Below, in pieces: positions 23,580-51,353 of a stretch of 64,000 nt of DNA (position 1 is the stretch's first letter; each line of letters opens with the position of its first letter). Under the pieces are notes generated by a model that was not told the DNA's origin, did not search any database, and was given only the letters and a program-made list of their open reading frames with translations. This DNA is from Owenia fusiformis. Lineage: Eukaryota > Annelida > Polychaeta > Sabellida > Oweniidae. A program made the position numbers and the translations under genes. Location: contig CAIIXF020000008.1 in assembly GCA_903813345.2 (NCBI GenBank), positions 38,314,867-38,378,866 of the forward strand, given 5' to 3'.

Positions 23580-24254
23580 CTAATATGGAAAGCCCGTAGT
23601 AGATGTAAGATGAATCGATATTGGTAGCGTCTTGGAAATAAAACAACTACTTAGATGGCTCTGTATACATCTTGGATGGCCACTGTTTGTTACAAGGTAA
23701 TATTTTCCGTGACGGTCTTTGAATTTGTCAGCATAGTATCCCATAACATGGTGGTTTTCACACGTTGGAATGGTATTACAGCCTCCCTGTAATGTAATCA
23801 GACAACGATGATTTTTCTGTACTTTTTATGATTACGATTACCGACAATTAATGATAGAATCAATATTTTAAACATGAGATTGTAAAGATTTTTTACATGT
23901 TATGGTGAAATACATAGTTTGAAATACATAATTCTGTAAACTTGATTCTTATTATTTGGGATATTTCGCAAAATTCATAAACTCAATGGATCAAAATTCT
24001 ACATTGAGGTATTTTTACATTTTACATATCTGTTGATACAACATTACAACCCAAATCCACACTATGGCTCTATACGGAAACGTGTTTTACCGTACCCTAT
24101 GGTACCATAGCTGAAATGGTACCATTTATTGCTGAACTTACTTGCTTGACATTATCTGTAGCTAAATTGCATGGTTGTGCTATAAATTCACAACTAGAGT
24201 CTATGGATTCCTTAAATAACTCAGTGCTCCTTGCATGGTGACATATACTTAAAC
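23580..24254 (-). CDS. Lipase gene last two exons with catalytic His
   Basis: Exon 24254-24142 begins [17 protein letters not shown]: the C-H-H-A-R motif supplies the catalytic His. Only 11 residues separate the lid cysteines (PGC...ICHH). Exon 23786-23580 reads [22 protein letters not shown], the usual end of the lipase N-domain, then [12 protein letters not shown] and a divergent Cys-containing tail ending TTGFPY and TAG at 23582-23580. A PLAT domain is absent, unless a cryptic donor leads to exons not found. Confidence 0.8.
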
Positions 24255-27200
24255 CTGAAAAATATACAACAGTTAAGTCCACTCCATGTTGCAAGAGGGA
24301 TATCTCTAATTTAATGTAGGTAGGGAATATACCAGTTGCACTTACTCGAATTCCTGAACTGAACACAAATACAAAAGGATTTAAGATCACATCATTCATT
24401 TTGTCATTAAAATTGCAATATGTCCAAATGGGCCCACTTTTGAGAAAGGAAGAGGTGCGTTTATTGGCAAATAACGGAGAACGCACCTCTTCCTTTATTC
24501 AAGTGCAAACAAACACCATCAATCCTTACCCCTCTTTTTCCTTTTCCTCCTACAACCTGGCTGATCACCACCCCCATTGGGGTAAAAGTCTACGTGGCCC
24601 ACAGGTCGCATGATGCCATAATCTACGATGTTAAACCATCCTGAGCCCCACGCATCTGTGTGGATTGCGTCAACAAAGTCGGCATCTGTAGGGTCAAGTC
24701 TATGGTCGGGGCCGAAGAATTCAAAAAGTGGACCAGCTGGATCTAAACCTGTTGGATTAAACACGGATGAGTCATCAATCTTTTTGGACATTTGGGATTC
24801 CCGGCCGTGCTGTTGTGTATTTACTTATATGGATTATAAGCCAATGAAATGTTGATAATACCCCTTTATTTTTTATATTACTGATAGATGGCGTTTAACT
24901 CACCAGTAATTCTCTTCAGTGTATTTTCTTTGCCGATGAATCCGCAAACATGAGACCCAAGACTGTGTCCTATACAATGTATACGCTTCGGGTCAAGTTT
25001 GAGTACATCCATTAGAAATGTACTGACCATTTTCCCAACGAGTTGGCCATTTGAGCTAGCCCTGTTGTAGTCAAGCAGGTATTTGGCCCCCTCCTCCCAG
25101 TCAATGGAAACCAAATTGAAGTCATCCTTGAACTGATACAAAGCTGTTATTGTGTTAATAAGTCTAATTCACACGTGGCTACGTAAGGTGTGTCCAGTTA
25201 AAAAATATTTTGCAATGTGTGGAAAGAATCAATGCCCTCGACCCAATGCATTGTGGCTGATTCATTCCATTAGGGCGTTGTCTCGAGAAAAGATTTGTAC
25301 AAAGGAACAAAAAGCAAATGCACTAAAAAATGTTAAAAAACCAATCTATATATAAAATATATATAAATAATTTTCGCATTTAGTTGTTGTTAACCAGTCA
25401 ACATTATTTAAAGGACCGTGTTTTTACAGAATGTTTTCAATAATTGGTTTAAGAGAAAAACATTGTTCAATGCAGTTCACCATATCGATACCTATCCTTT
25501 CATAAAGAAGGCATACATATATGGAGTGTTTTATCTGCAATGATTCTAAAGTGTCTGCCCGGGGTTCTACTCAAATAGTTAACTTAACTAACCTCTTTAC
25601 TGAACACCCCTCGTGTCTCTCGTATCCATTCTACCGTACCATATGAGAGAAATCCGTGGGAGAATAATTTGGTTTCCTTGTTCGGATCCAGCAAATGACT
25701 ACAAAATATAACATCTTAGTATAATTTGTTTGACATACATAATACATTATATGGTGCCCTTATTATAAACTACATGTACATGTATATAGCTCTTTTAACA
25801 AAAAAGCATCAGAATCTTCAAAAATTTCACTATGAATTTCCAGACGCCTTGGAATATGTTAGCTTTTGATGAATGTACAAAGAAGATATCGTATAGGATA
25901 AATAGATCATCCTATATTCGGTTCTGGATATTGGGCTTACCCCTTGTCAAATATATTATCCCTGCCATTGGGACACCCTGTCATCAGGCCGATGTATTAA
26001 ATTGGCTAAGGGATAAACTCAATATCCCAAACCCCATATAGAATCCCTATATACGTTCTTACCCCGTATGCTCATTCAAGCATCTATATTGGTCGCTACC
26101 AGGTTCTTTGACGAGTAGCTTTAGTTTAATATCACGCGGGTGATCTGGTAAGACATTAAAGGGGGATTTACTGTAGCAGCAGCTAAGTTGCTCAAAACAG
26201 ACCTTATCCGCAGTTCTGAAAAGTAAATACTTTCCTATATACCACGCATGATTTTTTTCAGATTTGTGATTTATAAAGTGCTGTACTTGAAAAAGATTGA
26301 CAAAATAGATTGCAATATATTAAAAACAACTGCTTCCTCACAAAATTACAGTATATCAAACAAATTACAATTCACGATTTTAGAGTTAGAAAATGGTAGA
26401 GAACTATAAAATAAATATTTTTACATGAGATAAGATTTACATTATAAGAGATACATTTTTTATTTGTAGTACTTTTATAATTCAATTACCAAGACAACAG
26501 GATAGTAAAATAACCATATATAAATAATGATAATAACACAATAATAAAACAACAGTTGATTTTGATCTATTTAATAAACATGACATTAAATTGACTAACT
26601 GTGTTTAAACAAATCAGATTACTCATCAATAAAAATCAAAATGGAAACTTTGCAAATGTTTGCATGTTTACCAGTATCCAATGATGCGTACTATTTGCAA
26701 TTAGCAATGAAATATTCAATTTGCAAATATTATTATGTGTTGGCAGGCGTCACGAAGTTAACTTTTTTCGAAAAATATTTCAAATTCAAAACAACAATTC
26801 AATGATGGATGCCATTTTAATTTTGCTTAAAGGACTTCAGACAAGTTTCTAAATTTTGCAACATCTTTTGCTGTCATATCATTTTCATGTTATGCCCTTT
26901 GGCCATGTTCAACAGTTCTAGCCTTGATGCCAATTTCAATTAAAGCTTTGGAGTGAAAAATTAAATGATCAAGATAATGTTGATTTGTTCAGCTCCTCAC
27001 CATTTAGTTAATTAACGGGGTTTAATATACCCTTTTCAGATCAAATAATTCATACCTGTTTTCTTTGACTGACTCATAAAGGTAGCATATTTCTGAAAAA
27101 TAAAATAAGGTATAAGAATGAGATGTTCAATGTTTTAGACTCTAGGTTACTTTAAATGCTATCAACGCCGAGTTACCTTCAGCCAGATTGGGTATGCCAA

Positions 27201-30200
27201 GGACACTTTCAATTTTAGTCCCCAATGATAATAAGGTGTCACGAGTTTGTTTAGATCATTTGAAAAAGCACTGTACGAGGGGTGATTCATAAGTAATGAA
27301 ATAAATTATATAACTTCACTGATGTTGCATAGATCGATCTTGTTCGAATTCGGTACGCAGAATCACACGAACTGTCACTAATTTCAGTAAGCCGAAATCG
27401 GAATAAGGTCACGAAATTTATCAAGCGATTGAACAACAAACTCTATCATTATAACTTAAAAGTCTGACTTACCCGTCTCGCAGAGCTGTCCAGTGTGTGA
27501 CTTTGGACAGCTACATCGAAAACCTACGTCTGAGCCATCGCACGTGCCTCCGTTCTTACACGGGGAACTGGAACATTGATTAATTTTGATACCTAGGTAG
27601 AAAAAGTGTATGATGTTCAACATTTTATGGCGTTCAACATTCTATGGCGTTCAACATTTTATGGCGTTCAATATTTTATGGCGTTTAACATTCTATGGCG
27701 TTCAACATTTTAAGGCGTTCAACATTTTATGGCGTTTAACATTCTATGGCGTTCAACATTTTATGGCGTTCAATATTTTCTAGCGTTCACCATTTTATGG
27801 TATTCAGCATTTATTTTATCAACTCTTTAATTTGAAATGTACAAGCGAAGTTTTGCACCTTTATAAAATGAAGAGTTCCAAAACTTTCCATTTTGGTCTT
27901 TTAATGATAGTAAAGACACATTGTTAAAATCGCTTACTCTTTGGCTCCTCCGCCTTAGTACAATTTTTAGAAGCATACTTCGTTCTGGTCAACCATTTCC
28001 TGAATCTCTTTACGCCAGAATTGAGAACGCTTATTAGCCTTGCTTTATCCGGGGAGTCATTCTGCTGTATTTGGTCCAGTGAATTTATAACTTGTCTCGT
28101 AATCAATCGTAGTCTCTTAAATTGTCTTTTGCCTGTTGTTCCTCTTGGTTCTTTCATCCATTGTTCATCCACCTTTTCCTACAAAACCAGTACAATCAAT
28201 TAATTGTGAGGTTGCTCATATTTAATGCAAAAAGCATGTGAACGGAAGTTGAACCATTGACACTTTTACTGTTTATCTAGAACTGTATTTCTTCTGCTCC
28301 ACATCTCATTTTAGACTTCGTAATTTCAAGAACTCATAATCTACAATTATTTTCAAGTCATTGTTCGCATCCCCTGAACCCTCTGGCTGCAGGCCTGTGT
28401 TCGTCAACCTCTGGTGTAATGAATTCCTTATCAATGAACTGTTTCATTTTTTTGTGGTTTTGGGAATAGCGCCTTAGATGCTCATTATCTTCGCATACTG
28501 GGTCTTCAATACCGCAGCCAAGTGAACGAAGATGCTAAATGCTGGGAAACGGGGGTATTCGACATCGATCTAGTCTGTATATATCATAAGACCATTGTCT
28601 CGTGATATTGATATAATCAGTTGGATATGGTATATATCTACTAGCTGTGATTTCTAGATCGTAGTTTTTGGTCTAAAATATTCTATACCTTCTGTGTAAA
28701 ATCCCAAAATAGTGTAAATTAAAATTTCAATTTCAATATTTCCATTAAAAAAATCCTGGTCTATAATTCGGCCTTTAATTATATTGAATGGACACTTGGA
28801 CGAATAATAGTAAACGGTTAAAACAAATAGCATATATGTGAACTACCTTTGAAGTATTTACTCAAGTCTTTGAGTAAAATCTAGGGACACATACTCATTT
28901 CAGGTATTAACAAATTTCAAAATAGAGTCCGAAATTTATTCCTTGGCGTACATCCAGAAATACCATACACAGGAAATAAAAGGTGAATAAGCTTGGACGT
29001 CCCCGATACACATAAGCAAGGCCAAAAGAACCCATGATTTAAGAATAAACAGTATCATATTTAACTGGTTGTTACAAAAAAGGGAAACATACAATTACTT
29101 CTGATCTGTCAAAAATTATATTCTTTAAATGTCTCAGTATTCCGATTAAATGATCGAACATACAAAGAAACAACAAAAGAAAAACAAAATACAACACATA
29201 GACATTCATTACAAGACACGTTTCATAATCTTAAAAAGAGACAAATTACTTCAAAAAGTTATAGATTATATTGTATGGCCGAAGATGGCCGAAGATGGCC
29301 GAACATGCTTGTATACTGCAACCGAAGATGGCCGAAGATGTGGCCCTAATCTTTCAAGGAATTTGATTGGTTCCCAGAAGCATCTTCGGCCATCTTCGTG
29401 ATATTAACATCTTCAACCGAAGATGGCCGAACATGCTTGTACTGCAACCGAAGATGGCCGAAGATGTGACCCTGACCCTTCAAGGAATTTGATTGGTTCC
29501 CAGAAGCATCTTCGGCCATCTTCGTGATATTAACATCTTCAACCGAAGATGGCCGAACATGCTTGTACTGCAACCGAAGATGGCCGAAGATGTGACCCTG
29601 ACCCTTCAAGGAATTTGATTGGTTCCCAGAAGCATCTTCGGCCATCTTCGTGATATTAACATCTTCAACAGAAGGTGACCGAACATGCTTGTACTGCAAC
29701 CGAAGATCTAGCTCTAACCCTTAAAGGAATTTATTGGTTACTTGAAGCAATCTTAAGGAAATCTTCGTGATATCTTCGGTGCAATTTCTTACCTTGAGGA
29801 ATTTCCCAAGAACAGAGATGACGTTGGCATGGGAATGAACCTCCCGAGCATTAACAGAGTTTTGTCTCCTTGTGTCTTTGCTAAATTGTCTTAGATCATC
29901 TATGAGAACTTTGACACTCTGAATAAGAATCCCCGTAGACAACTCGCCTTCTAAAAGGAAAATATTATACACGATAATTATCATGAATAGTGTGTTATCA
30001 ATGGGGTTGAGGCCAGGGCTCTTATCCATATGAATCTAGGATGAAGAAATCATTTTAGCTCCTTTTTGATGTTCTTTATTCCCGTGCCATTGCATGAACA
30101 TGTATCATATATCCACTTTTTAATAAAACAATTCTGCACTCCAACAGATGCATACAGATCGATACAAATATTGAACAAATGGTTCATTCTATTGAATCTT

Positions 30201-33200
30201 TTAATGATTTCAGCAAGGGGGTTGGGGATGGGATCGGGAATTCACATTGCGGAATCACTGAAAGTCGTATATAATTACTTCTGGGACAACCCTCGTACAT
30301 TGATACTTGCATTTACCGAAAACAGAATGGTCAAAATATTTGTTTTTATATACATTTTATTATTCCTCGCTTTATTTGCCAGATCTTTTCAGAAAAAATA
30401 AAACAAATTAATTTCATCACCAAATCGGCACACACACCCCTGCGATTTTAGGCTTACATTGGATGTAAAATCCCTCATCCTTTGTACACGTCCTGCTAGT
30501 GACGTCTATTATAACGTCATACACCCTTGAGCTGGGATTGAAATATTTGTTATTAATACAGACTGTCGATCTTTCAGTGAGTCAAACCATGGGCTTGGTC
30601 AAACTCACCAAAATTAATCCATCTCTTAAATAGAACCTAGTAAAAGTGTTTAATGACCATCACCTTCCGTTGATTTCTTGTGTCAGAATTTTTAATCAGG
30701 GGAACATTATAAAGTATAGTAGTCTTAATATTTTTTAAATATACTCTTTAAGTAGATTTTAAATGTTTACTGTACTACACAGGGCAATTTGTTTTCGAAG
30801 CATTTCATTAGAATTTATCAATTGGTGTGTTTTTCTTCTTGATTTTTGCGTCAATTGGTTTATTTTGTTTTACACCCTATGCTTAGTGAGCGGAGCTAAT
30901 TTCAAGGGCGATGGTAAAGACGAGGCAGGGCGCCCAAAAACCCAAAAAATATTAGTACCATAATCTTTTAAGTCGTATTATTGCAGCATAAGGTGATGAT
31001 ATTGTGATATTTTATGCTGTTTTAGAAGTGAAAGATGTTAAACTATGCATACCGTTTATTTTACATCCAATAAAACGAATAGTTAAGATGAAACAGTCGT
31101 TTAAAGATACAATTTGAATTTACCGCAAGAAATTACAACCTAATATTGTCAATATGTCAATAATTCCTGGTCGATGTCACATATATAGAGATTATCCTAT
31201 ATGAGGTTCAGGATATTGGGATTATCCCGAGGCCAATATAATATATCTGCCCGAGGGCCGTAGGTCCCGAGGGTAGATATATTATATTGGCCAAGGGATA
31301 ATCCAAATATCCTGAACCGACTATAGGATGATCTGTTTATCCCATACCAATCACATTGTTCAATTTGCCAAAGTTCAGAAACTTTGCAATCAACCGTGGA
31401 ATATTCTTAAAATATTCATGTCTAGTTTTGTATTCCCGTTTCTTTCCTATTCAAATCTTTGATTATTAACGCCGGTACACTGCTCCTCCCCTTCTTTAAA
31501 GCATCAAACAGGTCGAGATTGTCTGCGTTTTTCTCCATTGTCGTTTACAGTATGCGAACGTTCCAAAAAAGAACCAATACGGGAACAGCGATTATGACGT
31601 AGCGGGCAGATATAGTATATCTGCCCGCTCGGAGCGGGACGTAAAGCTATATCTGCCCGCTGATGAAAATATAAGTTTTTACAAACCGGCTTTATGTACC
31701 CGTAACACGTCCAAGTATGGGATAAAAAGATATATGTACCTAGATATGTTTTATTTTTTCATATATGCGAAATAAGGCGGTCTCTAGTTATGTACATCCA
31801 ATGCAAAATGAATGTTTACTAGAGTGTCTATTCGGCGATCAGAATTTCGATGACGAGCAATGGCGATGTAATTTGCGAAGAAAGCATCAGTGCACCTAGT
31901 TACAGGCCAGGTTTGGGCGCCATGCCTCGTCTTTACCATCACCCTTGAAATTAGGTCCGCTCACTAAGCATAGGGTGTTTTAGCTGTAGCAAATAAAACG
32001 ACACAGATCTGAAATTTATTTGTGTTTTGGCACACTTTTGAAGTTGATTCTACTAACCAATATACAATAGGACAATAAAATAATCAAAAACGACTAGACC
32101 GATTGTTTAGTACACGAGCACTACCCTCTTATCAAATTGAAATAACATATGTACTTATCTTTGATTGTAAATCGATATATTCAAACAGTCCCTTGCTTTC
32201 ATTCTATTGCATAATTCATTTCAATATGTTACTAAGTTCTCCAAAATGGTCATATCAGTGCAACGAAAAGTGTTTGTCTCGATAGTACAATGACATCAAA
32301 CATGACATTGTCTTAGTACAATGACATCAAACATGACATTGAACTTGTATGCGGACACCATTAAGCCACGATTGATAACAACAATTCAAATAAAAACATA
32401 GGTAATCGTGAACGAATATTTGATTAATTTAAGAATACTAAATGAATGTATTCAGTATTTCCGCCTCCCATAAGGGTAAATTCAAATTTGTTCGGTTATA
32501 TAATATTTATATTATTGTATGGTGGCTTACAAGGTGAGAACTCAATCAGAAGAGGGTGTGTCTAACGAACGAATCATAGTTGTTCATTTGGTAGAGAAGG
32601 ATTTCCCCCTAGAAGTCAACTTCACAGGGAGGTTTGCCAGAATGCAACCCATCAGATCTCCAGTCTATTAACCGTAAATACATCTTATCTGTGCTTCAAT
32701 TTTAGGTTTTGCAAGTTCAGCCTTTGTCTACGAGGTGCATTTTATTAAACTATCAATGAAAAGATGTTACCTCAACTTTGAGGCATATTGACCAAATAGT
32801 CTTCTGATTTCTTTGGAAGAAGGTGGCCCGTTGCTCGTGGGCTGCATTTTTGATCACCCTGTAAATGCACCCTTAATGAGCGTTCTGTTTAGATTATTTT
32901 TAGAGGTGAATAATTTCATGATAAAAGGGATTATACTAATCATCACTAAATTGTACAAAATGTCAGAAAAGTAAGTTCTTCAATTCAAGATCAAGTGAGA
33001 ATGTGTGGAATAGGCTTGTCTCTGAGGGCTGTATAGGGGGACTGACTAATTGTTAGATCCCTGGGATGTGGCAATGATCCAATATTCCATTGAAGTTGGG
33101 TCATTAACTAAGTACCTCAGCAGATCATGCCTCACAACTAGATCATCTGAAATGTTTACATTTTGTCAAAGTCAGCGAAGGTGACTTTTCTAACTACATT

Positions 33201-36200
33201 TAATAACACTATTAAGGTGCCGAGTGCACATGTATTTTCTAAGTTCATTGTCAAATTGAATGATATTTATTTGCCTTTTAAACCCTCCCAAATTAGCACA
33301 CTAATCAGACGTTTTATTTTCAAATCGCTTATCAAATTTAATTCAAAATTCACTGGTGTTCATCTACACGACATTCGTTCAACACAAGCAATGCACTGAT
33401 TTATGAACTTCAATTAAATTGTTATTTTTTGCATCGAAACATATGTCACATTTATTTAAGGAAGCGTTTTTGTTGCTATATATTATAGCACATGGCGTAA
33501 ATGGAAATGACATATTTTATTCAATTGATATAAACACGAATAACAAAAAGGCAGACGCATTATTTACAGTGTGTGACTTTCCTAGGGGGAAAGTATCATA
33601 ATGGTTCTGTTTTAAAATGCAAAATAGAGTGGAACAAAGTGGAATTAGTTAGAAATAAAATACACAGACATGTAGTCAATACTCTAAATTTTATAAAATG
33701 TACGAAAATCTCACACTTCATTTAAATCTAAGAGAGAAATAACACGAAATAGCCATGACCAGCGAGAAATTTAAAACTGGTAAACGTAAAAAAAGCATTT
33801 AATAACCTTAAGTATCCTCAACGTTCAAGTCAAGATTATAGAATGAAGTATTCACTATGGTGTGTATTTACTATTCATTTATCATAATAAACAATCATTT
33901 GAATGATTAAAATTGAAATATAGTCACTAAATCATTCATAAAAAAGTTGTTCGATATCTGATACTATAAGGACACGTGAATTCCCAAGTACAACATCTCA
34001 ATGGGCAGTTAATCTTGCGCGTTTTAAGAACTACCGTCACTAATTTTACATCAGCTTGATAGACTAGATTGATTTTAAGTGGTTTCCAGTCAAATAATAA
34101 ACACTGCCAATTCAGAAGTCTGGCAACTCGGTCTGGCAAATGTATTTTGTCATTTTTATAAAGAGGCGATGGATGAGAACTTTGGGGCGAGGTGCGAGTG
34201 GGTAGGGAGGGGTGGGGATTTTCGCATGACCAAGAAAATCAATGTTCCAATAAAAACTCAATAGTTACTGTAGGAAGTTGAACTTCTCCCCTTTACTGTA
34301 ATAATTTATTGCTGAAACAACTTTTCTACTAAATAATCTAAACTTTCACAATAGTGGTCGATGATTTTGTGACTTACTCACTTTAAAAAAATCAGTTCCC
34401 TAATAACACCCAAAAAAAACTTTACAGACCTTACACCTGTACAGTTCACTCACCTGTACATTCTATAGGATCATCTTTGAAGGGTGCCAAAAATTTGCTC
34501 AGTTCATCCTCCAGTGACGTCAGCTTGAGAATTTGCGTTATAATCTCCAATAATGAAGAGTTGCTTAGTTTCGAAAGGAAATCGAGAATTTTGTCAACGA
34601 TTGGGAGCAGGTCGTCTAAGATGGATCTTACTTTATTCTTAGCATGTTCTCCTATAAGACTAGCCTTACCCTAGAAAGAGATGAGTTCAATTACTTTACA
34701 GCATCAAAAGTGCCATACTAAATCATGACTCTCAATTATTTACATTTGAATTACTCCTTTAATAAATTCTGACCATGCACAATTATGACTATAATGACTA
34801 TTATGATACTGAGCTTGTATTCGCGAATGCAACTAACGCCTGTCGGCTACCGGATTGAACTACTATTTTATGGGTAACTCACTAAAATATGAATAGTACC
34901 TGCCACTATTTCATTCATATTTAAGTGAGTTGGTCATAAAATAGTAGGTTAATCCGGTAGCCGTCAGGCGCTATTGCATTCGCGAATACAAGCTAACTAT
35001 GACCAGCGCACTAATCACACACTAAATACTATGAATTTCATATTTGATCATTAATCCCATACTAAATATCAAATTCCATGTTAATCTATTTTATACAATA
35101 TACCTCAAGGTATTGTCCAAGGTTGGAAACAGCTTGTACTTTCTTGTTTATAATCTTTTTATCACCGTTTGCCTGTTTTATTCCACCTTCAAGCTGTTTG
35201 AGTTCAGCGACGAAAACGTCCACACTTGGGACCAGATTCTTTACTTGTTTTTCAGCCTTCGATAGAGAGTTTGATGCCCTACTGGCTCTGTGATTTTTAC
35301 CTGGAAAAGTTACATGTAGTTAAGCCTGGTGTGGTATACCATGAAGTGGCGCATCATGATTTAATATAAAACGCTATCATTGCTATGGTAATTTGCCGTG
35401 ATAGAACATTACATAATAGATGTAGTAAAGGATGATGTGACCGACAGACAGACAGACAAACCGACCGACCGACCGAACAAACGAACGATCGACCGACAGA
35501 CCGACAAACAGATCGTCTGACCATTATAATAGGCTCTATGCCATAGGATAGCACAATCAAGACCCCTTTGAACCTTTTTGCATATTGAGTTTCACCACAT
35601 ATTCACCCATCTACTTACCAGAAAGAAGAAGTTCCAAATCCCCCTCTTTCAGTGTTAATTTTGCGATTGTGCTGGCCGATCTAATTATTTTCGAGTAAAT
35701 TAATTCAATTGGTCGTTAAATTTGTTTTCATGAACCTGATTGGCTGCCTGGTTCAAGGCGCTTGTGGGCGCCTGTGTGACTCAATGGGGATTCCCCTCGC
35801 TAGCAGAGGACTCCATTGTGCTTAATTCTGGAGTTTGGTTGTTCTGTTGATTGTTTCAATATTTCGGCAATAATATAACCAAACGTTATTCTCAAGATAT
35901 ATCCATGGTATGTGAGATATTATACGAGCAATAACAATAGGACATCATTGATTGTCTGGGGAAGAAACCTATGGTATAATGCATCTTTAAGAGACATATT
36001 GTTTACAAGGTGAAAGAACATGCTACTTTCCTTCCACTTAACTAACACATGTAAGCCACGTGAGTGCCACAATTAAGTAACCACATAAAAAACTACAGGG
36101 TGTCTGATAAATCCCCCCTTAAGCCAAAACCTTAATAGATGGTACCTTGTGTGATATACCATTGGAAAGACTACATTAACTCACCAACTCTTTAATATTT

Positions 36201-39200
36201 TGTATGTTCATGATGTCATGATTTCATTACGTGAGAAAAACATTGCACGAAAAAAGTTGAGGCGCAAACATGTATTAAAGGGTGACGCATATCGTTTAGC
36301 AAATCGAACGCTCGTTTCTGGTGTTGCTCACCGTTTAGTATAAAAGGCCCGATCCCGGAATAATACTCAAGGGTTCACAGGTTCGAGATCGTTGTGTCAA
36401 CACCTCTAACTGTTATATAGCATAAGTATATTATAGATCGTCACACATTTATAAAAGGGTGATTTTTATTTTGACAAATCAATTCCACATTTATGGATGA
36501 AGTTTCAGGATCTTCTATTTGTGTATAATAAGGAAAAATTGGCATCTAAATTTCCCCATAACGTAATAGCACACAGCTTGGCATATGAAATATCCTACAA
36601 ATGAAACAAAGCAAGACAAACCGGTTTCTAATACAAGGATTTATATTGGCTGTTGTACATGTATTCTTTGAACGCAATCACTCTTTGGATAACGTTTTCA
36701 AAATCATTATAAACGGATTACTTTATCTCAAAGACAATTTCAATAAACTGGATTTTACAGAACTCCCCTTATTTCTTAAAAATGGACCGATCCAGTTGAT
36801 TCGCCTGGAGCCGCCATATTGTTTTTATACGGGATGCTAATCGGAACCCTTTAAGACCCTGAAAACCATGCGTTTTTCACATTATGAAAAGGGAGAAGAG
36901 CTAAAGATGGTTTCTAGAAATGGTTTAAAGGTCATTTAAAATAAAATTACCCAAAATACCGAACAATATACCAAACGATAAGAAAACTAGTTAATTTGTT
37001 TTAGTAGTTTCTCTAAAGTTTACCATTATTTATTACATTAAACATGTTTAAAGTATCCAGAAAAACAGTGTTTTCTCCGCGATGAAATTAAAGTTGATTT
37101 GAAGTGCGTGTAGACCTGCGCAAAAAACAAACTTCCAAAAGTTGACGTCATTTGATATCCGGGCTTTGTTTTGTCATCCGGGCTTTGTTCAGATAAGTGA
37201 AACTTGAAACATAGAAGCAAGAAAAGAACTCTCTATGTTTTCTGTTTTCTTGCTAAAAGGTCTCTACCACTATCTCCTGCCCCTCTCTATGCTGCACATC
37301 CAACCCTGTTCATAAATAGGATGACTTCACTGCAAAATATATATTTTTAATTTTGAGTTACCTTTCCCTTTTAGATGCTTGATTTTCAAAATCCCCCCAA
37401 ATATGCCAAGTTGCCTTGTTTCTGGGTCTATCGTCACCTCAGATGATACAATGAAGCAATTTGTGACATTGATTGACATGTTTCAGGTATATGCAAGTCA
37501 ACCTAACTTTGAATGATCTTTCCAATGGTATATCAGACAAGATATCTCAAAGGAGAAGCTCCTCTGGACATAATTTACGTAACCTCTTAACTTTGGTCTT
37601 ATCGATCGACCAATCGTTATTTTGAAATATTTGAAATAGCACCCATTGGCAGTGCCACGAGGCGGTGGCACTGCAAGCAAATCCGGCACATAAAAGTAAC
37701 ATGTCATCTCATTTCAGAATTTTGTTTTCCAACGTGTGACACGTTGTGACATGTTGATAAAGGCTCGTACAGTGTTACAAAGATTTGGTCTAGCCGGTGG
37801 TGACATTACATTTTATGAGCAATTCCGTATATTTTTATTCATTTCAAATGGCAGCATCTGACATTTGAGGAAAAATAAAAACTTATAGTAAATACAGGTG
37901 TAGCAATACTCAATGAGAAAGCGGCAATACATAACAATAGGTTCAGACAAAAATATGAAACAACAAAATAAATCAATAACAACTAACAACTTTTATTGTA
38001 AACCTTATACTGAAAATATACAATTGCTAAAAGTGTCACCAATTCGTGCAAAGTATTTTACGTGTCATTAAAATAAATAAAACATAAACATAGAAATGAA
38101 CAATTCAATGATTATTCTCACTGCCTTTCCTGTTTTGACTCACAGTAAGTTTTTCTTCTTCGTTTCAGTAAAATGGAAAGTTTGAAAAATTGAACTTCCA
38201 TATGGTTTTTAAAAAAGTGGATTCATGCCAATAATTTTTTCATATTGACTAGCAATCATATTTTTTATCTATACAATGTTATAATGTATTTACAAACATA
38301 TCACACTACAAATAAACGTGCTATCAATTGCATGGTATTGTCTCAAGGCCTAGAAATGAAATGGAAACGATAAAAAGTCATATCGGGTATTGGCTCACCA
38401 ATGTGTCCCTGCATAGTGTATTATATGAATTACTCCACTTCGGGTAAGCTTTTAATAGCTTTCAATAAAGCTGAAAAAAGATCGACGAACGATTGGCATA
38501 ACGGAGAAAATGTGTTTTAAAAATATACTTGATACTGCATTCCCGGGCCTAGGGCCTCAGACATGATTACAACTATTTGATAAAGAGAAATAACTGTACA
38601 CTCCGTACGTTTAAAGGGACAATATGTTTTTGCAATATCATTCCATGGCATACTTTTTTTTACTAAAAGACCAACACTTGTCACTTCATTTCAAGAAAAT
38701 AAAGATGGTGTCGCAGATCTAATGTCTTTCACAGTAGTAGGTCTACTTCGATAGATCTCAAATTATTTTAAACTCAGGCATTTATTTATCTTGAATTTCA
38801 ATAACTTAAATTTTTGATCAGATACTTAACAGTACCTTCGCCTTTTCAGAAATAAAATCAGGACCGATAGGTTGCCTCTAACATTTTAAATTGTTTATCC
38901 TTTCGTATTCCTTTAACCCTTTCACGACGATAGGCTCCATATGGAGCCCTATTATATAATACCTTTCAGGACGATGGGCTCCTTTTGGCACCATTATTTT
39001 TATTTCTATGCATCAATGAAATGACAATATCTCCAGTTCTATTCAGTATTTTTACACCAAATTTTGACAAGTTGTTAAAATGTGATAGTCCTTCTTAAAA
39101 AATGTATTTAGGTGATTCAATTTAAAGCATACGTCCTGGGATATAGGTAATTTACAGTTTTTCCCTAAAAACTGCTCTTACTTATCCGTCACCAGTCCAA

Positions 39201-40967
39201 TATTTTCCTCTTATATTCACGTCAGGAAAGGGTTAAATGTCACAAAACTAGATTCATTGACATAAGAATCACAAATAAAATTACCAACAGTGATATAGAA
39301 AGGTACCAGTAATTAAAAAACATAGAAAGGCACCAGCAATTAAAAAACATAGAAAGTAATTACCAGCAATTAAAAAACATAGAAAGGCACCAGCAATTAA
39401 AAAATAAGAAAGTTACCAGTAATTAAAAAACAAAGAAAGTTACCAGCAATTAAAAACGGAAAGTCACCGACGACATTAGCATCATGTACAGACAGTTAAC
39501 AACCAACAAATACAAAATGATGAATGCTAAACAGCTTCAAATGAAAATTTGCTTGAAATTAAAAATGTTTCGGTAGGATAAAATATCCATCAGAAAAGGT
39601 ATTTGCATTACTAGAAGTTTATTGAGAAGTGTTCGGTGTTTACATACCTAGTGTTTTAACTGTAAATTGGTTACTAATTAGACAATATTGGTCAAATAAA
39701 TAGGTTTAACTGTCCATCATTTGTGGTTGAGTAATGAGTGTAACACTTGTAATTACTAAAACGCCCATAGAAATGTCTCAAAATGAAATGTTTCAAATGT
39801 CCAATAACACAGCTCAATATGTAGCATACAAAATTAATGTCAGTCCCTTTGTAGATGAAACACAACGCAATCCCAGATTGACCTTTTCACCCCGAATCAA
39901 AACTTCTTGAAAGAAATTTATTTCTAGCGATTTTTGCTAGGCACAAAATATCTTATATTTTGTCTATCTCAAGCTGATTAATTTATAGTCCCATGCTGTA
40001 CTATATAGTCACATACTGAATCCAATAGTCTCATAAGTCCTATACTGTACTGTAGTCCCATACTGTACTGTATAGTCCCATAGTGTACTGTATAGTCCCA
40101 CTGTACTGTATAGTCCCATAGTGTAATGTATAGTCCCATAGTGTACTGTATAGTCCCATCCTGTACTGTTGTCCTATACTGTACTGTATAGTCCCATATT
40201 GTACTGTGTAGTCCCATACTGTACTGTATAGTCCCATACTGTACTGTAAAGTCCCATACTGTACTGTAGTCCCATACTTTACTGTATAGTCCCATACTGT
40301 ACTGTATAGTCCCATAGTGTACTGTATAGTCCCATAGTGTACTGTATAGTCCCATACTGTACTGTAGTCCCATACTGTACTGTATAGTCCCATAGCGTCC
40401 CATACTGTACTGTAGTCCCATACTGTACTGTATTTCCATACTGCACTGTATGTATGGTCCCATACTGTACTGTATAGTCCCATACTGTACTGTATAGTCC
40501 CACAATGTATCGTATAGTGACATACTAAACCATATAGTCCCATACTGTACTTTACAGTCCCATTTTGTAACTGTATTGCATAGTCCATACTGAACTGTAT
40601 AGTCACATTCTGAAGTCGAATTGTCCAATTTAAACGGAAAAGTGACATGCTGAACTGTATTAAGTCACAGATCAAACTTCATAGTCCCATTCGAAATAGT
40701 CAAATACATATTTGATCATATTGTCTCATATATGACTATAACTAAGTGACTGCTTACTTTTAATAGAAAAACTCATCAACAAATCTAGAACAGCGAAACC
40801 CCAAAGCTATCAATTAAGGACACATTTAAACTAAAGTGACATACCCTTTTAAAAAATAATTATTAAAATATAATAGAATATGAAAATTCCTACTCACCTC
40901 GTGCTAGTTCAATATTGAGGACAACCGTAAAAAGAATAAAAGTCTTGAAAACTGAAGGAAATTTCAT
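23580..40967 (-). CDS. Secreted EGF-like plus pancreatic-lipase-family enzyme (13-14 exons)
   Basis: Minus-strand exons in transcript order: 40967-40898, (35645-35619, weak), 35300-35104, 34670-34454, 29950-29793, 28178-27938, 27592-27473, 27092-27056, 26215-26063, 25698-25593, 25132-24904, 24748-24530, 24254-24142, 23786-23580. Phases are consistent throughout, giving about 697 aa with a TAG stop. Order of domains: signal peptide (1-23), charged helical region (about 24-303), EGF-like module (304-343), lipase fold (about 345-697). Catalytic Ser499 in GHSLGSH, Asp521 in ITGLDPAGP, His598 in CHHARS; oxyanion-side HGF in [10 protein letters not shown]. Predicted to hydrolyse acylglycerols or phospholipids outside the cell. 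No PLAT/C2 domain follows. Residue numbers assume the weak exon is used. The N-terminal region matches no family I recognise. Confidence 0.85.
24530..25132 (-). CDS. Lipase gene exons with catalytic Ser and Asp
   Basis: Exon 25132-24904 reads [18 protein letters not shown] and [18 protein letters not shown]; the Ser in GHSLG is the nucleophile. Exon 24748-24530 completes [14 protein letters not shown], with the catalytic Asp, then [19 protein letters not shown] and [15 protein letters not shown]. The chain then enters an unusually basic lid, RRKRKKR. The beta9 loop between HTD and GHVDF is about as long as in true pancreatic lipases. Confidence 0.9.
25593..27092 (-). CDS. Lipase gene exons encoding the start of the lipase fold
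   Basis: Exons 27092-27056 ([12 protein letters not shown]), 26215-26063 and 25698-25593. The middle exon gives [30 protein letters not shown], matching the opening of pancreatic lipases (Cys-rich turn, then P-x-D/N with beta strand). The third gives [20 protein letters not shown], the HGF oxyanion-side motif. The 25593 donor GAG|GTTAGT is paired with the acceptor ATCAG at 25133; an alternative pair (donor TTCA|GTAAAG with acceptor AACAG, about 10 bp upstream) also keeps the frame. Confidence 0.8.
25885..26052. mobile_element. Degenerate copy of the ATATTGG/TATCCC palindromic element
   Basis: Contains ATAGATCATCCTAT, GGATATTGGGCTTACCCC and, inversely, AAGGGATAAACTCAATATCC. It resembles the reverse complement of 31182-31348 and is more diverged. 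It lies just beside the 26063 donor of the lipase gene. Confidence 0.55.
27473..27592 (-). CDS. Lipase gene exon encoding an EGF-like domain
   Basis: A 120-nt exon, phase 1 at both ends as is usual for shuffled EGF modules. It reads [26 protein letters not shown], then [12 protein letters not shown]. The six cysteines follow the C-x4-C-x5-C-x8-C-x-C-x8-C pattern of an EGF-like fold. The short DGSDVGF loop lacks an obvious calcium-binding D-x-D/N-E start. Confidence 0.85.
27600..27812. repeat. 18-bp minisatellite beside the EGF exon
   Basis: About 11 copies of TTATGGCGTTCAACATTT with point variants. It starts within 10 bp of the acceptor of the EGF exon (27592) and fills much of the intron to 27938. 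Confidence 0.9.
27938..29950 (-). CDS. Lipase gene exons for novel N-terminal helical region, part 2
   Basis: Exon 29950-29793 (acceptor TTCCTTTTAG) encodes [20 protein letters not shown] and [14 protein letters not shown], again helical. Exon 28178-27938 (acceptor GGTTTTGTAG) encodes a strongly basic segment, [20 protein letters not shown] and [15 protein letters not shown], then NCTKAEEP (a sequon NCT) just before the EGF exon. The high Lys/Arg content could mediate binding to acidic surfaces or heparin-like glycans (inference). Confidence 0.7.
29275..29720. repeat. 126-bp satellite with internal inverted arms
   Basis: About 3.5 copies of a 126-bp unit, nearly identical. Each unit holds CGAAGATGGCCGAAGATG and its inverse CATCTTCGGCCATCTTCG, so single units can fold back. 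Since 126 is 42 codons, the minus strand keeps a 117-residue open frame of repeats ([20 protein letters not shown]). It is intronic in the lipase gene, directly downstream of the 29793 donor. Confidence 0.85.
31182..31348. mobile_element. Long palindromic MITE
   Basis: Nearly the whole stretch is one imperfect palindrome: CAATATAATATATCTGCCCG and GGGTAGATATATTATATTGG are opposed around GAGGGCCGTAGGTCCC, flanked by GTTCAGGATATTGGGATTAT and its inverse. Related half-sites occur at 25885-26052 and 42722-42790. Confidence 0.75.
31598..31655. repeat. Short GC-rich palindrome cluster
   Basis: AGCGGGCAGATATA and TATATCTGCCCGCT are inverted, and TATATCTGCCCGCT recurs at about 31642 after GGAGCGGGACGT. 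It may be a remnant of the neighbouring palindromic family. Confidence 0.6.
32284..32345. repeat. 31-bp tandem duplication
   Basis: TAGTACAATGACATCAAACA followed by TGACATTG occurs twice head to tail, with no other notable content. Confidence 0.7.
32346..34453. other. Intron of the lipase gene with no recognised feature
   Basis: AT-rich. Short open frames (33163-33601, 33936-34264) have no splice-site support or recognisable motifs. Confidence 0.4.
34454..35300 (-). CDS. Lipase gene exons for novel N-terminal helical region, part 1
   Basis: Exon 35300-35104 (acceptor ACTTTTCCAG, 65 codons) reads [31 protein letters not shown] and is amphipathic helical, rich in Lys, Val and Leu. Exon 34670-34454 (acceptor CTCTTTCTAG, donor GTGAGT) reads [20 protein letters not shown] and ends PIECT. 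Together they look like a helical bundle, with one Cys. No family recognised. Confidence 0.7.
34812..34995. mobile_element. Palindromic MITE, copy 2, in a lipase intron
   Basis: Inverted ends AGCTTGTATTCGCGAATGCA and TGCATTCGCGAATACAAGCT are near perfect, with internal CTACTATTTTATGGG and CATAAAATAGTAGG arms and GGCTACCGGATT / AATCCGGTAGCC arms. Shares ends and inner arms with 22135-22299. Lies in the intron between exons 34454-34670 and 35104-35300 of the minus-strand lipase gene. Confidence 0.8.
35440..35515. repeat. Tetranucleotide GACA/GACC/GAAC microsatellite
   Basis: GACAGACAGACA passes into CCGACCGACCGAAC and ACGAACGATCGACC units. The minus-strand open frame across it (Cys/Arg/Ser/Val repeats) is an artefact. 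Confidence 0.9.
35619..35645 (-). CDS. Lipase gene, possible 27-nt micro-exon
   Basis: A good donor (TTCTG|GTAAGT) at 35619 follows an open 27-nt stretch (EGDLELLLS) that is phase 1 at both ends, so it may be included or skipped without changing frame. The acceptor (CTGAAAG) has no pyrimidine tract, so it may be spurious. Confidence 0.3.
37649..37674. repeat. Perfect 10-bp GC-rich hairpin
   Basis: GCAGTGCCAC and GTGGCACTGC flank GAGGCG within AT-rich intron DNA. Could be an RNA hairpin or element relic; no neighbouring gene explains it. Confidence 0.5.
38913..39236. mobile_element. piggyBac-like MITE with TTAA target duplication
   Basis: Left end TTAACCCTTTCACGACG and right end CGTCAGGAAAGGGTTAA are inverted, each bounded by TTAA, the strict target site of piggyBac transposases; the CCCTTT start is typical of their termini. 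About 320 bp, no coding capacity. Lies in the first large lipase intron. Confidence 0.8.
39292..39470. repeat. About 27-bp minisatellite
   Basis: Seven or so imperfect copies of CCAGCAATTAAAAAACATAG plus AAAGGCA/AAAGTTA, immediately after the piggyBac-like element. Confidence 0.8.
39985..40600. repeat. 20-bp minisatellite TAGTCCCATACTGTACTGTA
   Basis: About 30 copies with 3-bp deletions and point variants, decaying toward 40600. Three units equal 60 nt, so the minus strand stays open in several frames for up to 216 codons ([19 protein letters not shown]). This is an intronic repeat, not a protein. Confidence 0.9.
40898..40967 (-). CDS. Lipase gene exon 1: signal peptide
   Basis: ATG at 40967-40965 opens [23 protein letters not shown]: basic n-region, then a hydrophobic core typical of a secretory signal, then a donor GAG|GTGAGT (phase 1). 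Cleavage probably falls near the exon end. This exon lies about 5.3 kb from the next one; assignment rests on matching phase and the need of a secreted lipase for a signal peptide. Confidence 0.7.
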
Positions 40968-41046
40968 CTTTTGTACTAACTTAAGAGCAGTTCACAATCC
41001 CTCTCTACTGAAGACGAGAAACAAGTTGAATGAATGCATGGGCCTG

Positions 41047-41053
41047 TTTTATA
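41047..41053 (-). promoter_or_regulatory. Putative TATA box of the lipase gene
   Basis: On the minus strand TATAAAA lies about 80 nt upstream of the signal-peptide ATG, a spacing that would place transcription start around 41020. Inferred from sequence only. Confidence 0.45.
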
Positions 41054-44954: not shown

Positions 44955-46605
44955 GGTTACATCTGACTAAGATTCTGATTTTCAGGTTACTTCTGACATC
45001 TAGGTTTCTTCTGTCTTCTTCTTGGTAACTTTTGGTTTCTAGGTTACTTCTGACATCTAGGTTTCTTCTGACTTCTTCTTGGTTACTTTTGGTTTCTAGG
45101 TTACTTCTGACATCTAGGTTTCTTCTGACTTCTTCTTGGTTACTTTTGGTTTCTAGGTTACTTCTGACATCTAGGTTTCTTCTGACTTCTTCTTGGTTAC
45201 TTTTGGTTTCTAGGTTACTTCTGACATCTAGGTTTCTTCTGACTTCTTCTTGGTTACTTTTGGTTTGTATGTTACTTCTGACATCTAGGTTTCTTCTGAC
45301 TTCTTCTTGTTTACTTTTGGTTTCTAGGTTACTTCTGACATCTAGGTTTCTTCTGACTTCTTCTTGTTTACTTTTGGTTTCTAGGTTACTTCTGACATCT
45401 AGGTTTCTTCTGACTTCTTCTTGGTTACTTTTGGTTTCTAGGTTACTTCTGACATCTAGGTTTCTTCGGACTTCTTCTTGGTTACTTTTGGTTTCTAGGT
45501 TACTTCTGACATCTAGGTTTCTTCTGACTTCTTCTTGGTTACTTTTGGTTTCAAGGTTACTTCTGACATCTAGGTTTCTTCTGACTTTTTTTTGGTTACT
45601 TTTGGTTTCAAGGTTACTTCTGACATCTAGGTTTCTTCTGACTTTTTTCTTGGTTACTTTTGGTTTCTATGTTACTTCTGACATCTAGGTTTCTTCTGAC
45701 TTTTTTCTTGGTTACTTTTGGTTTCTATGTTACTTTGACATCTAGGTTTCTTCTGACTTCTTCTTGGTTACTTTTGGTTTCTAGGTTACTTCTGACATCT
45801 AGGTTTCTTCTGACTTCTTCTTGGTTACTTTTGGTTTGTATGTTACTTCTGACATCTAGGTTTCTTCTGACTTCTTCTTGTTTACTTTTGGTTTCTAGGT
45901 TACTTCTGACATCTAGGTCTCTTCTGACTTCTTCTTGTTTACTTTTGGTTTCTAGGTTACTTCTGACATCTAGGTTTCTTCTGACTTCTTCTTGGTTACT
46001 TTTGGTTTCTAGGTTACTTCTGACATCTAGGTTTCTTCGGACTTCTTCTTGGTTACTTTTGGTTTCTAGGTTACTTCTGACATCTAGGTTTCTTCTGACT
46101 TCTTCTTGGTTACTTTTGGTTTGTATGTTACTTCTGACATCTAGGTTTCTTCTGACTTCTTCTTGTTTACTTTTGGTTTCTAGGTTACTTCTGACATCTA
46201 GGTTTCTTCCGACTTCTTCTTGGTTACTTTTGGTTTGTATGTTACTTCTGACATCTAGGTTTCTTCTGACTTCTTCTTGTTTACTTTTGGTTTATAGGTT
46301 ACTTTTGACATCTAGGTTTCTTCTGACTTTTCTTGGTTACTTTTGGTTTCTATGTTACTTCTGACATCTAGGTTTCTTCTGACTTCTTCTTGGTTACTTT
46401 TGGTTTCTAGGTTACTTCTGACATCTAGGTTTCTTCTGACTTCTTCTTGGTTACTTTTGGTTTCAAGGTTACTTCTGACATCTAGGTTTCTTCTGACTTT
46501 TTCTTGGTTACTTTTGGTTTCTATGTTACTTCTGACATCTAGGTTTCTTCTGACTTCTTCTTGGTTACTTTTGGTTTCAAGATTACTTCTGACATCTAGG
46601 TTATC
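44955..46605. repeat. 57-bp minisatellite upstream of UGT copy 1
   Basis: About 29 head-to-tail units containing GACATCTAGGTTTCTTCTGA and CTTCTTCTTGGTTACTTTTG. 57 is 19 codons, so long open frames (LLLTSRFLLTSSWLLLVSR) arise on the plus strand and NLDVRSNLETKSNQEEVRR on the minus strand. Variant units (GTATGTTAC, TTGTTTAC, TCGGACTTC) recur in similar order at about 45260-45500 and 45830-46050, showing block duplication. Not a gene. Confidence 0.92.
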
Positions 46606-47701
46606 TGTGCATGTATGCAATGCATACAGACTTATCTCGAGCTTTTGAGTTTCTTTATTACACTCTCCCCTCGTACAACCCTAACACACGTAATATTCGG
46701 ATATATATACGGATATGTAGAGCTTCTCATCCTGATTTTTTATTGAACAAAGGTTCCCTCTACCTTGAAATGTATGCGTACACATATGTTTTGAAATCAT
46801 AAACAATCATTTAATTTCTTATATCTATCTCATCGATCATGTAAACAATACTAATGGGACTACATGGACTGTCCTAATCCTTAGATGGTCATTGTCCGAT
46901 ATTAGCTAGGGAGTTTAAGCTTGCATATAAAATTGAAACGCCAACTTATACGTATGACCAATCGCCCATACAAATGCATCGCTTAAATATTTTCTGTTCA
47001 CGTTTAGGTTGTGAAAAATATTTTATACCCTTACGAATAGAGGAGTGTCCATAGAGCTTTGATACCTCGCTAACTCTCGTTTTCCATGAGGTTTTGAGAG
47101 ATTTGCACTTTGACCTCTAACAACTGACTTTCTTTTTAAAAAGCATATTTGAATTCAGTGGAACGTTTTCAACAATAATGACTGTTTTTTACAGTTATGT
47201 CTCATTTTCCACGTCGTTTAAAAAAACTTGGGCCAAATCTCCATTGAAATTGAAATGTTAAAACACGTGACAATGAACTAACACATGGAGTTTATTTTTC
47301 ATCGAAATATAAACACATCAGGTTCAAAGTCTGTGGTCGATCAATAGGCTTATACTCAAAATGTACTATGTTATGTTACCCTTTCTGTACACAACTCAAC
47401 ACATCTTAATATATGAGGATTGTGTTACCAGTGAATGTCTTAGTCATTAAAATCACAATAGCAATGCAAAATGACCTACCCTTAAGGAATATGGGGTATC
47501 TTTCCGTTCCGCACGAATAATTGACAACATATGAACATTTCGTAAAGGAATGTCAAGATATAGGTAGCATTTTTATCAATTGCCTGAGTTCAATATCGAC
47601 AAATACAAACTAGAGACGAAGAGAAAACTTTCAGAAGCGAAGTCAAACAAATATAATTCAGAGTAGGAATACTTCGTATTTCCATCTCGTGGAAAAGAAC
47701 A

Positions 47702-50271: not shown

Positions 50272-51353
50272 GACTTATCTGGAGCTCTTGAGTTTCTTTA
50301 TAACACTTGTACTCCCCTCAAGATTAACACATTCGTAATATCCAGACGGATATATGTAAAACTTCTCACCCTGTTTTTATTTTATTAAACAAAGATTGTC
50401 TGTACTTTGAAATGTATGCGTACACGTAATTTATAATCACATAAAATCATAGAAAGTCACATTTTCTAGGAAGAATAAAAATCTCGGATACATGAACAAT
50501 TTACCATTGATATTCAAAGATCTAAGGAAAAAATAAACTCCGTATTAGCTTAAATATTTGAATCATAAAATATGCCTCTCCTTAAGTTTCTGTAAATTAT
50601 TTTTTATGTCAATACCCTAATGTTGTGATACTTTTCTAGGCTGCCCAGTGCATAAAACGAAACTGTTGTGAAATAACAAAATGTAAAATCATTCGTTAAA
50701 AGATGGCAGCACAATGCAAATATGATATGAGATACCCCTTGTACTCTGTGATATTGAATTAAGACAAAACTGATTGTGCAAACATAACACAGTGCCTCCT
50801 AAGAGGCTCCCGAGGCGATATTAGATTGTGATTTTCTAAGAAAGAGAATATATGACTTCGTATGAAATTACATTTTTAAAACATGTGACATTGGAATAAT
50901 ATATTTTGAACTTTTAAACTAATAACCATTTAGTTTATTTATTTTCTATCCAAATCTAACATATCAAGTCCAAAGTCTGCTGTAGACATGGTAGATCACG
51001 ATACTCTAAAATGAAAATGTTCTTTGCGTATGTCACCCATTTAGTGATTCTTCTCTAACATTTCAAAACATCTTATATATAAGGAATAACTAACCAAAGA
51101 ATAACCAAAGATAAGACAAAAATGACTGTTCTTACGGAATATGAATTACCTTTCCGTTGTTACATTCACGATAAATTAACCATATATTATAGACACTTTG
51201 TAAGGGGTTTTAAAGTCAAGATAGAGGTAGCATTTTCAAGTACCATTTGTCTGAGTAAATTCAATATTAGCTAATACAAAAGAGCGACGAAGACAAATCG
51301 TCAAACGAATGCAAAGATAAGGAGTTCGCATTTCCGTCTTGTAGTCAAGAACA

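What the first reader, a model, noticed from the sequence alone, without database searches (positions are those of the whole stretch)
23580..40967. Secreted lipase with novel helical N-terminus, EGF module and mini-lid
The exon chain gives signal peptide, about 280 residues of unrecognised helical and basic sequence, an EGF-like exon, then a pancreatic-lipase-type catalytic domain with an intact triad and no PLAT domain. The usual family has no EGF or long N-terminal extension. The extension could act as a tether, inhibitor or surface-binding module. All joins agree in phase, including the classic 1-1 EGF exon.
Basis: partly seen in the sequence, partly recalled or inferred. Interest (0 to 1): 0.78.

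Follow-up and report, generated by a model that had tools for sequence, protein, structure and literature searches.

The report
Secreted lipase with helical EGF front
This animal gene appears to encode a secreted fat- or membrane-lipid-cutting enzyme of the pancreatic lipase family that carries an unfamiliar, positively charged helical front end and one EGF module; the enzyme itself is ordinary, and whether the front end is new could not be settled with the databases at hand.

Summary
On the minus strand, 13 exons at 40967-23580 join through GT-AG introns into one open frame of 688 residues: signal-like peptide, ~276 residues of basic, probably helical sequence, one EGF exon (phase 1-1), and a near-complete PF00151 lipase domain (E 2e-59, profile 22-334 of 336) with triad Ser490-Asp512-His589. 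No PLAT domain was found in the minus-strand frames 30900-20999. The mini-lid is real (13 residues Cys to Cys) but is paired with a long beta-9 loop (23 residues). This resembles guinea-pig PLRP2, the best PDB match, and some wasp venom lipases (PMC7240578 passages), so lid length is not new. What I add: helical exons 2 and 4 resemble each other and share phase 1-0, suggesting a partly diverged tandem duplication, though exons 3 and 5 show no similarity; and the lid is polybasic (RRKRKKR). The N-terminus matches no Pfam family at cut-off and no PDB sequence. No eukaryotic protein or transcript database was available, so architectural novelty and the single transcript are untested. Verdict: new variant of a known kind, moderate-low interest.

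The parts
41048..41053 (-). TATAAA box-like site, 86 nt upstream of the start codon
   Evidence: 6.9% of sampled minus-strand positions have one 60-130 nt upstream
40898..40967 (-). Exon 1: start codon and signal-like peptide [24 protein letters not shown]; leaves in phase 1
   Evidence: in-frame stop at 40994 with no Met between it and the ATG; signal peptide judged by eye, no predictor run
35104..35300 (-). Exon 2 (phase 1-0), residues 24-89, basic helical segment
   Evidence: 65-residue model, helices 3-42 and 47-64, mean pLDDT 76.3, pTM 0.41; same frame, later acceptor 35256 preferred
34454..34670 (-). Exon 3 (phase 0-1), residues 90-162, helical hairpin, Cys160 near its end
   Evidence: 72-residue model, helices 3-34 and 40-65, mean pLDDT 70.7, pTM 0.37, single sequence; same frame, later acceptor 34651 preferred
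29793..29950 (-). Exon 4 (phase 1-0), residues 162-214, similar to exon 2 up to the shared exon end
   Evidence: score 49, 0 of 2000 shuffles reach it; 9 of 5000 pattern-keeping shuffles; recovered exactly
27938..28178 (-). Exon 5 (phase 0-1), residues 215-295, strongly basic (20 K+R, 9 D+E), Cys287 near its end
   Evidence: recovered exactly; no sequence similarity to exon 3
27473..27592 (-). Exon 6 (phase 1-1): EGF-like module, six cysteines 301-332
   Evidence: 22.4 bits, cut-off 21.5; 20.1 bits unspliced
27056..27092 (-). Exon 7: 37-nt linker exon (phase 1-2), [13 protein letters not shown]
   Evidence: an in-frame join without it, via an acceptor at 26234 with a poor pyrimidine tract, is possible
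26063..26215 (-). Exon 8: start of lipase domain (KVCFEQLSC ...)
25593..25698 (-). Exon 9: lipase domain with HGF oxyanion-type motif (motif role recalled)
24904..25132 (-). Exon 10: nucleophile Ser490 in GHSLG
   Evidence: unspliced Pfam match
24530..24748 (-). Exon 11: Asp512 (GLDPAG), beta-9 loop of 23 residues, polybasic lid start CRRKRKKR
   Evidence: unspliced Pfam match
24142..24254 (-). Exon 12: end of lid (Cys587) and His589
23580..23786 (-). Exon 13: end of catalytic domain, tail with two Cys (660, 668), stop TAG
   Evidence: AATAAA at 23218 downstream
28969..29058 (-). Possible alternative first exon ([30 protein letters not shown]) whose phase-0 end could join exon 5
   Evidence: one of 46 signal-like ATGs on both strands, 7 of them with a donor; no TATAAA within 200 nt upstream; coding score -7.3

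Best explanation
One gene encodes a secreted alpha/beta-hydrolase of the pancreatic lipase family. Shown by sequence: signal-like peptide, near-complete catalytic domain with triad Ser490-Asp512-His589, short cysteine-bounded lid with a long beta-9 loop, an EGF module, and a basic, probably helical N-terminal region. Inferred: the short lid leaves the active site open, so the enzyme cuts phospholipids or galactolipids (A1 type) rather than relying on interfacial activation on triglyceride. The helical region takes the place of the missing PLAT domain by docking the enzyme on an anionic membrane or matrix surface, with the EGF as spacer. The helical region arose by tandem duplication of a phase 1-0/0-1 exon pair, with Cys160 and Cys287 possibly disulphide-linked, and was joined at the phase-1 EGF boundary by exon shuffling.
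For: Open spliced frame and phases; Pfam Lipase and EGF above cut-off; best PDB match guinea-pig RP2 lipase 2.4e-43, hornet PLA1 also matched at 7.4e-19; lid 13 and beta-9 23 residues against published lengths (PMC9031518 and PMC7240578, passages); no PLAT in the frames searched; N-terminal residues 25-300 net positive (50 K+R, 33 D+E, pI 9.8) with amphipathic stretches and helical models; exon 2/exon 4 similarity.
Against: No transcript or relative was available. Exons 3 and 5 show no similarity (1149 of 2000 and 3488 of 5000 shuffles reach the score), so duplication of the whole pair is inference. Exon 2 also reaches the same score against 3 of 245 golgin windows of 53 residues and 14 of 240 of 81 residues, although exon 4 never exceeds 31 there; and in tblastn at E up to 1 exon 2 hit the golgin (E 0.001) but did not hit exon 4. 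Helical models rest on one or two sequences, pTM 0.37-0.41. A beta-9 loop over 15 residues is held essential for triglyceride activity in insects (PMC7240578 passage), so a long one does not argue for a phospholipase. The docking role is not tested.
Confidence: 0.42

Rival explanations
1. The helical region is a propeptide or intramolecular inhibitor: it covers the open (mini-lid) active site until cut by a protease at one of its dibasic sites, so the short lid is compensated by the front end.
For: Dibasic KR at 231, 235 and 271 in exon 5 and RRKRKKR at 576-582 in the lid; position N-terminal of the enzyme.
Against: No protease-site predictor was run; an EGF module between an inhibitor and its enzyme would be unusual (general knowledge); helical regions are just as suited to binding surfaces.
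Confidence: 0.2
2. Two transcription units or alternative promoters: a shorter lipase starts at a separate signal-peptide exon at 29058 and joins exon 5, while exons 1-4 belong to another gene or isoform.
For: A signal-like exon at 29058-28969 with a phase-0 donor compatible with exon 5; a 4.5-kb intron between exons 3 and 4.
Against: 46 signal-like ATGs occur on the two strands of the window, 7 with donors, so such an exon can be chance; no TATAAA within 200 nt upstream of it; exon 2/exon 4 similarity argues that these exons belong together.
Confidence: 0.17
3. Exons 2-5 are partly gene-model artefacts and the real protein is signal peptide (elsewhere) plus EGF plus lipase, or lipase alone.
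For: Domain-architecture differences in predicted metazoan proteins are often prediction errors (PMC3927609 abstract); acceptors of exons 3 and 5 score 0.0 and -1.0 when left out of training; the scan prefers other acceptors for exons 2 and 3 and ranks exon 5 only 6th or 9th.
Against: The four frames are among the best candidates from 3066 segments, all phases fit, exons 2 and 4 resemble each other. Exons 10 and 11, which Pfam confirms, have weaker left-out acceptors (-4.7, -1.5).
Confidence: 0.12
4. About novelty, compatible with the explanations above: the architecture is real but already common in this animal's lineage and simply listed as predicted 'pancreatic lipase-related' proteins with EGF modules.
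For: Family members are found in marine invertebrates: a PF00151 protein in mussel shell (PMC6641155 passage) and a PLRP1-like one in Exaiptasia (PMC6626399 passage).
Against: In the listings of eight lipase+EGF searches I saw no such protein, but most of the matching papers were not listed or opened and domain tables are seldom searchable this way. The Exaiptasia protein had PLAT and no EGF; the mussel one was listed with Lipase only.
Confidence: 0.4

Closest known systems
Guinea-pig pancreatic lipase-related protein 2 (PDB 1gpl, 'RP2 lipase')
   Same: Best PDB match by sequence (2.4e-43); triad context aligned; long beta-9 loop (21 residues His to His, my count in the alignment) and very short lid (5 residues between the lid cysteines there, 11 here).
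   Different: The PLRP2 kind has a C-terminal PLAT domain (recalled) and the PDB chain begins near the catalytic domain, with no EGF or helical N-terminus; its lid (KTGIS) is not polybasic.
Phosphatidylserine-specific and phosphatidic-acid-selective phospholipases A1 (PS-PLA1, mPA-PLA1)
   Same: Short lid (12 residues published, PMC9031518 passage; 11-13 here, by convention).
   Different: They have a short beta-9 loop (13 residues, same passage); here it is 23 counted His to His, a convention under which wasp neutral lipases range from 15 to 23 (PMC7240578 passage).
Hornet venom phospholipase A1 (PDB 4qnn) and wasp neutral lipases with short lids
   Same: 4qnn is a 300-residue chain; short lids with long beta-9 loops are described in parasitoid-wasp venom lipases (PMC7240578 passage).
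   Different: No EGF or N-terminal extension in the PDB chain; the few lids visible in the passage of PMC7240578's table are not polybasic.
EGF-like domain (PF00008)
   Same: Six cysteines with ordinary spacing, phase 1-1 exon, 22.4 bits against a cut-off of 21.5.
   Different: By eye it lacks the calcium-binding and beta-hydroxylation consensus (motifs recalled).

Membership tests
Pancreatic lipase family (PF00151) | Profile match over the catalytic domain | tested here: met
   2e-59, 202 bits, cut-off 27, profile 22-334 of 336
Pancreatic lipase family (PF00151) | Ser-Asp-His triad in GHSLG, GLDP and C-x-H context | tested here: met
   Ser490, Asp512, His589, aligned with pancreatic lipases
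Pancreatic lipase family (PF00151) | Lid bounded by two cysteines | tested here: met
   Cys575 and Cys587 bound [13 protein letters not shown]; the disulphide itself is inferred
Vertebrate-type pancreatic lipase / PLRP with C-terminal PLAT | PLAT domain after the catalytic domain | tested here: not met
   Not in the protein (E up to 1) nor in three minus frames 30900-20999 (E up to 0.1)
Extracellular PLA1 (PS-PLA1/mPA-PLA1) subgroup | Short lid (12) | tested here: met
   13 residues Cys to Cys, 11 between; published value from PMC9031518 passage
Extracellular PLA1 (PS-PLA1/mPA-PLA1) subgroup | Short beta-9 loop (13) | tested here: not met
   23 residues His to His
Extracellular PLA1 (PS-PLA1/mPA-PLA1) subgroup | Phospholipase A1 activity without triglyceride activity | not testable with these tools
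   needs an enzyme assay
EGF-like domain PF00008 | Profile score above cut-off and six-cysteine pattern | tested here: met
   22.4 bits vs 21.5 in the spliced protein; 20.1 bits in the genomic frame, below cut-off
Any described family for residues 25-300 | Pfam match above cut-off or PDB sequence match | tested here: not met
   Best Pfam GrpE 0.051, 13.7 bits vs cut-off 25.8; 0 PDB sequences at E up to 10; fold search of the exon 2 model: 0 of 61 matches at E 0.001

The most novel reading that the evidence does not exclude
A two-part control of a secreted phospholipase not described before: a duplicated helical docking module coupled through an EGF to a catalytic domain whose mini-lid carries a polybasic RRKRKKR stretch. 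A proprotein convertase cut there, with the halves held by Cys575-Cys587, or direct binding of the basic lid to anionic lipid or glycan, would open the active site only at the docked surface.
Probability: 0.07. Interest if true: 0.6.

Novelty: new variant of a known kind. Interest (0 to 1): 0.36.

Why it matters
Secreted lipases of this family are usually targeted by a C-terminal PLAT domain or by none (general knowledge). A lipase that puts an unfamiliar helical module and an EGF in front of a mini-lid catalytic domain would be a natural test of how accessory modules set where and on what substrate these enzymes act, and an example of exon shuffling at phase-1 boundaries.

Tried and rejected
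The window's genome is not held, so a whole-genome paralogue search was not possible. Close-relative scans with two lipase fragments found none: 0 confirmed of 3 and of 11 pattern matches in viral contigs and 0 of 114 in bacterial/archaeal contigs; these collections are not meant to hold animals, so this says nothing about novelty. A second copy of the gene or its helical exons in the window was looked for by tblastn and not found: besides the self-matches there were only weak ones (E 0.001 to 0.9), the best helical ones in the neighbouring golgin (exon 2, E 0.001), the best lipase one for exon 8 at 2959-3066 (E 0.015). That search did not list exon 4 for exon 2. The minisatellite segment 29719-29477 scores best as an exon but there needs phase 1 and cannot follow exon 4, which ends in phase 0; rejected. 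The signal-like exon at 29058 was considered as the true start (see rivals). A fold search with the exon 2 model was uninformative. In one search exon 8 was one base short and the frame after it had stops; one search corrects it. Exon scores used splice models trained on the same exons and are circular; one search replaces them. No signal-peptide predictor was available; my crude filter missed exon 1, because it read past the donor into an intronic stop. The host animal was not identified; AT-rich and intron-rich with many tandem repeats, a bivalve or other spiralian is a guess.
Full report
Gene model. All coordinates are window coordinates on the minus strand. Joining 13 exons from 40967 to 23580 gives 2067 nt, 688 codons and a TAG stop, with 12 GT-AG introns whose phases agree. 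Exon 1 encodes a signal-like peptide (by eye). A TATAAA lies 86 nt before the ATG, and in-frame stops lie at 40994 and 41051. An AATAAA follows the stop at 23218.

Catalytic part. Pfam finds Lipase PF00151 at 2e-59 over residues 362-657 and an EGF at residues 301-329, 22.4 bits against 21.5. Parts of the lipase domain are found above cut-off in unspliced genomic frames, and the EGF just below its cut-off, so they do not depend on my joins. In PDB the best of 15 matching sequences is guinea-pig RP2 lipase (2.4e-43), then other pancreatic and lipoprotein lipases, and lastly hornet phospholipase A1. The triad is Ser490, Asp512, His589. The lid is [13 protein letters not shown], 13 residues, and the beta-9 loop 23 residues counted His to His. 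Published lengths are lid 22-23 and beta-9 18-19 for classical lipases, 12 and 13 for PS-PLA1 (PMC9031518, passages). In a wasp survey beta-9 loops range from 15 to 23, lids of at least 18 residues are said to be usually required for normal triglyceride activity, and long beta-9 with short lid is described for venom lipases (PMC7240578, passages). The lid here is thus of the phospholipase/galactolipase kind and the beta-9 loop of the lipase kind. A review's reference list, seen in passages, names a guinea-pig PLRP2 chimera with phospholipase A1 activity (PMC8287333); that this is 1gpl is recalled. No PLAT was found in the protein or in three frames of 30900-20999. The three minus frames of 40700-30799 gave no Pfam match at E up to 0.1.

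N-terminal part. Residues 25-300 have 50 K+R and 33 D+E, pI 9.8 and two cysteines. They have no Pfam match at cut-off and no PDB match at E up to 10. Exon 3 alone is modelled as two helices (mean pLDDT 70.7) and exon 2, with exon 4 as its only companion, as two helices (mean pLDDT 76.3); pTM is about 0.4, so folds beyond 'helical' should not be read. Foldseek gave 0 of 61 matches at E 0.001. Exon 2 and exon 4 align up to their common phase-0 ends: score 49 against 23.3 +- 4.5, 0 of 2000 shuffles, and 9 of 5000 when the hydrophobic pattern is kept. Against golgin windows exon 4 never exceeds 31, but exon 2 reaches 49 in 3 of 245 windows of 53 residues and 14 of 240 of 81 residues, and tblastn listed the golgin but not exon 4 for exon 2, so part of the signal may be helical composition. 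Exon 3 and exon 5 do not resemble each other. Tandem duplication of an exon pair is therefore likely for the first half and only inferred for the second, from the shared phases 1-0/0-1 and a cysteine near each end.

Are the helical exons coding and in this gene? With splice models trained only on sites of exons 6-13, the frames of exons 2, 3, 4 and 5 rank 2, 3, 4, 6 (first codon model) and 5, 2, 3, 9 (second) among non-overlapping picks from 3066 stop-free segments of 41000-27940; rank 1 is a minisatellite segment. For exons 2 and 3 the scan preferred acceptors at 35256 and 34651 in the same frame, so their 5' ends are less certain. A rival start exon at 29058 exists, but 46 signal-like ATGs occur on the two strands of the window and 7 have a donor. 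The 37-nt exon 7 could be skipped in frame by using an acceptor at 26234.

Novelty. Eight combined lipase and EGF terms: searches found 0 papers; 17 (59 papers, 15 listed), 20 (39, 15 listed), 21 (475, 15 listed), 38 (22, 20 listed) and 54 (1) showed no EGF-lipase in what I saw of the listings. (1,433 papers, 12 listed) asked for molluscan lipases and for lids. Passages opened: PMC6641155 (a PF00151 protein in mussel shell), PMC6214176 (nothing relevant), PMC6626399 (a PLRP1-like protein with PLAT). The library holds only open-licence papers and no animal protein database was available, so this does not show novelty. Gene-prediction error is a known source of false architectures (PMC3927609, abstract).

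Verdict. The enzyme is an ordinary family member with PLRP2-like loops. The helical front and EGF make it a new variant at most until transcripts and relatives are seen.

Noticed in passing
44980-46602: 57-bp tandem repeat, 28.5 copies, 96% matches; the minus strand reads as 19-residue repeats (TKSNQEEVRRNLDVRSNLE) in long open frames. One of those frames gave only a sub-cut-off Pfam match (DUF1400).
   Followed up: partly
7426-11262 and 20399-20998 (+): 1278-codon open coiled-coil stretch of a golgin-like gene, with further exon candidates on both sides; TRIP11/GMAP-210-like is my recall, Pfam names nothing above cut-off.
   Followed up: partly
47657-49294 and 51345-52943 (+): Two tandem, closely similar, uninterrupted UDP-glucuronosyltransferase ORFs (PF00201, 3e-91 and 2.3e-91).
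   Followed up: partly
55527-57636: Perfect repeats: 300 nt twice 1254 nt apart, 49 nt three times, and a 120-nt perfect inverted pair: very recent duplication or assembly error.
   Followed up: no
34806-35000: Hairpin-like element with nested inverted repeats (61 nt at 87%, 27 nt at 93%) in the intron between exons 2 and 3, MITE-like.
   Followed up: no
29289-29707, 39984-40612, 27615-27812: Minisatellites (126, 20 and 17 bp units) lie inside three introns of the lipase gene.
   Followed up: partly
58286-58849 (+): Open frame with a weak, sub-cut-off match to FAD-dependent oxidoreductase DAO (1.3e-4, 22.1 bits vs 27.9).
   Followed up: no
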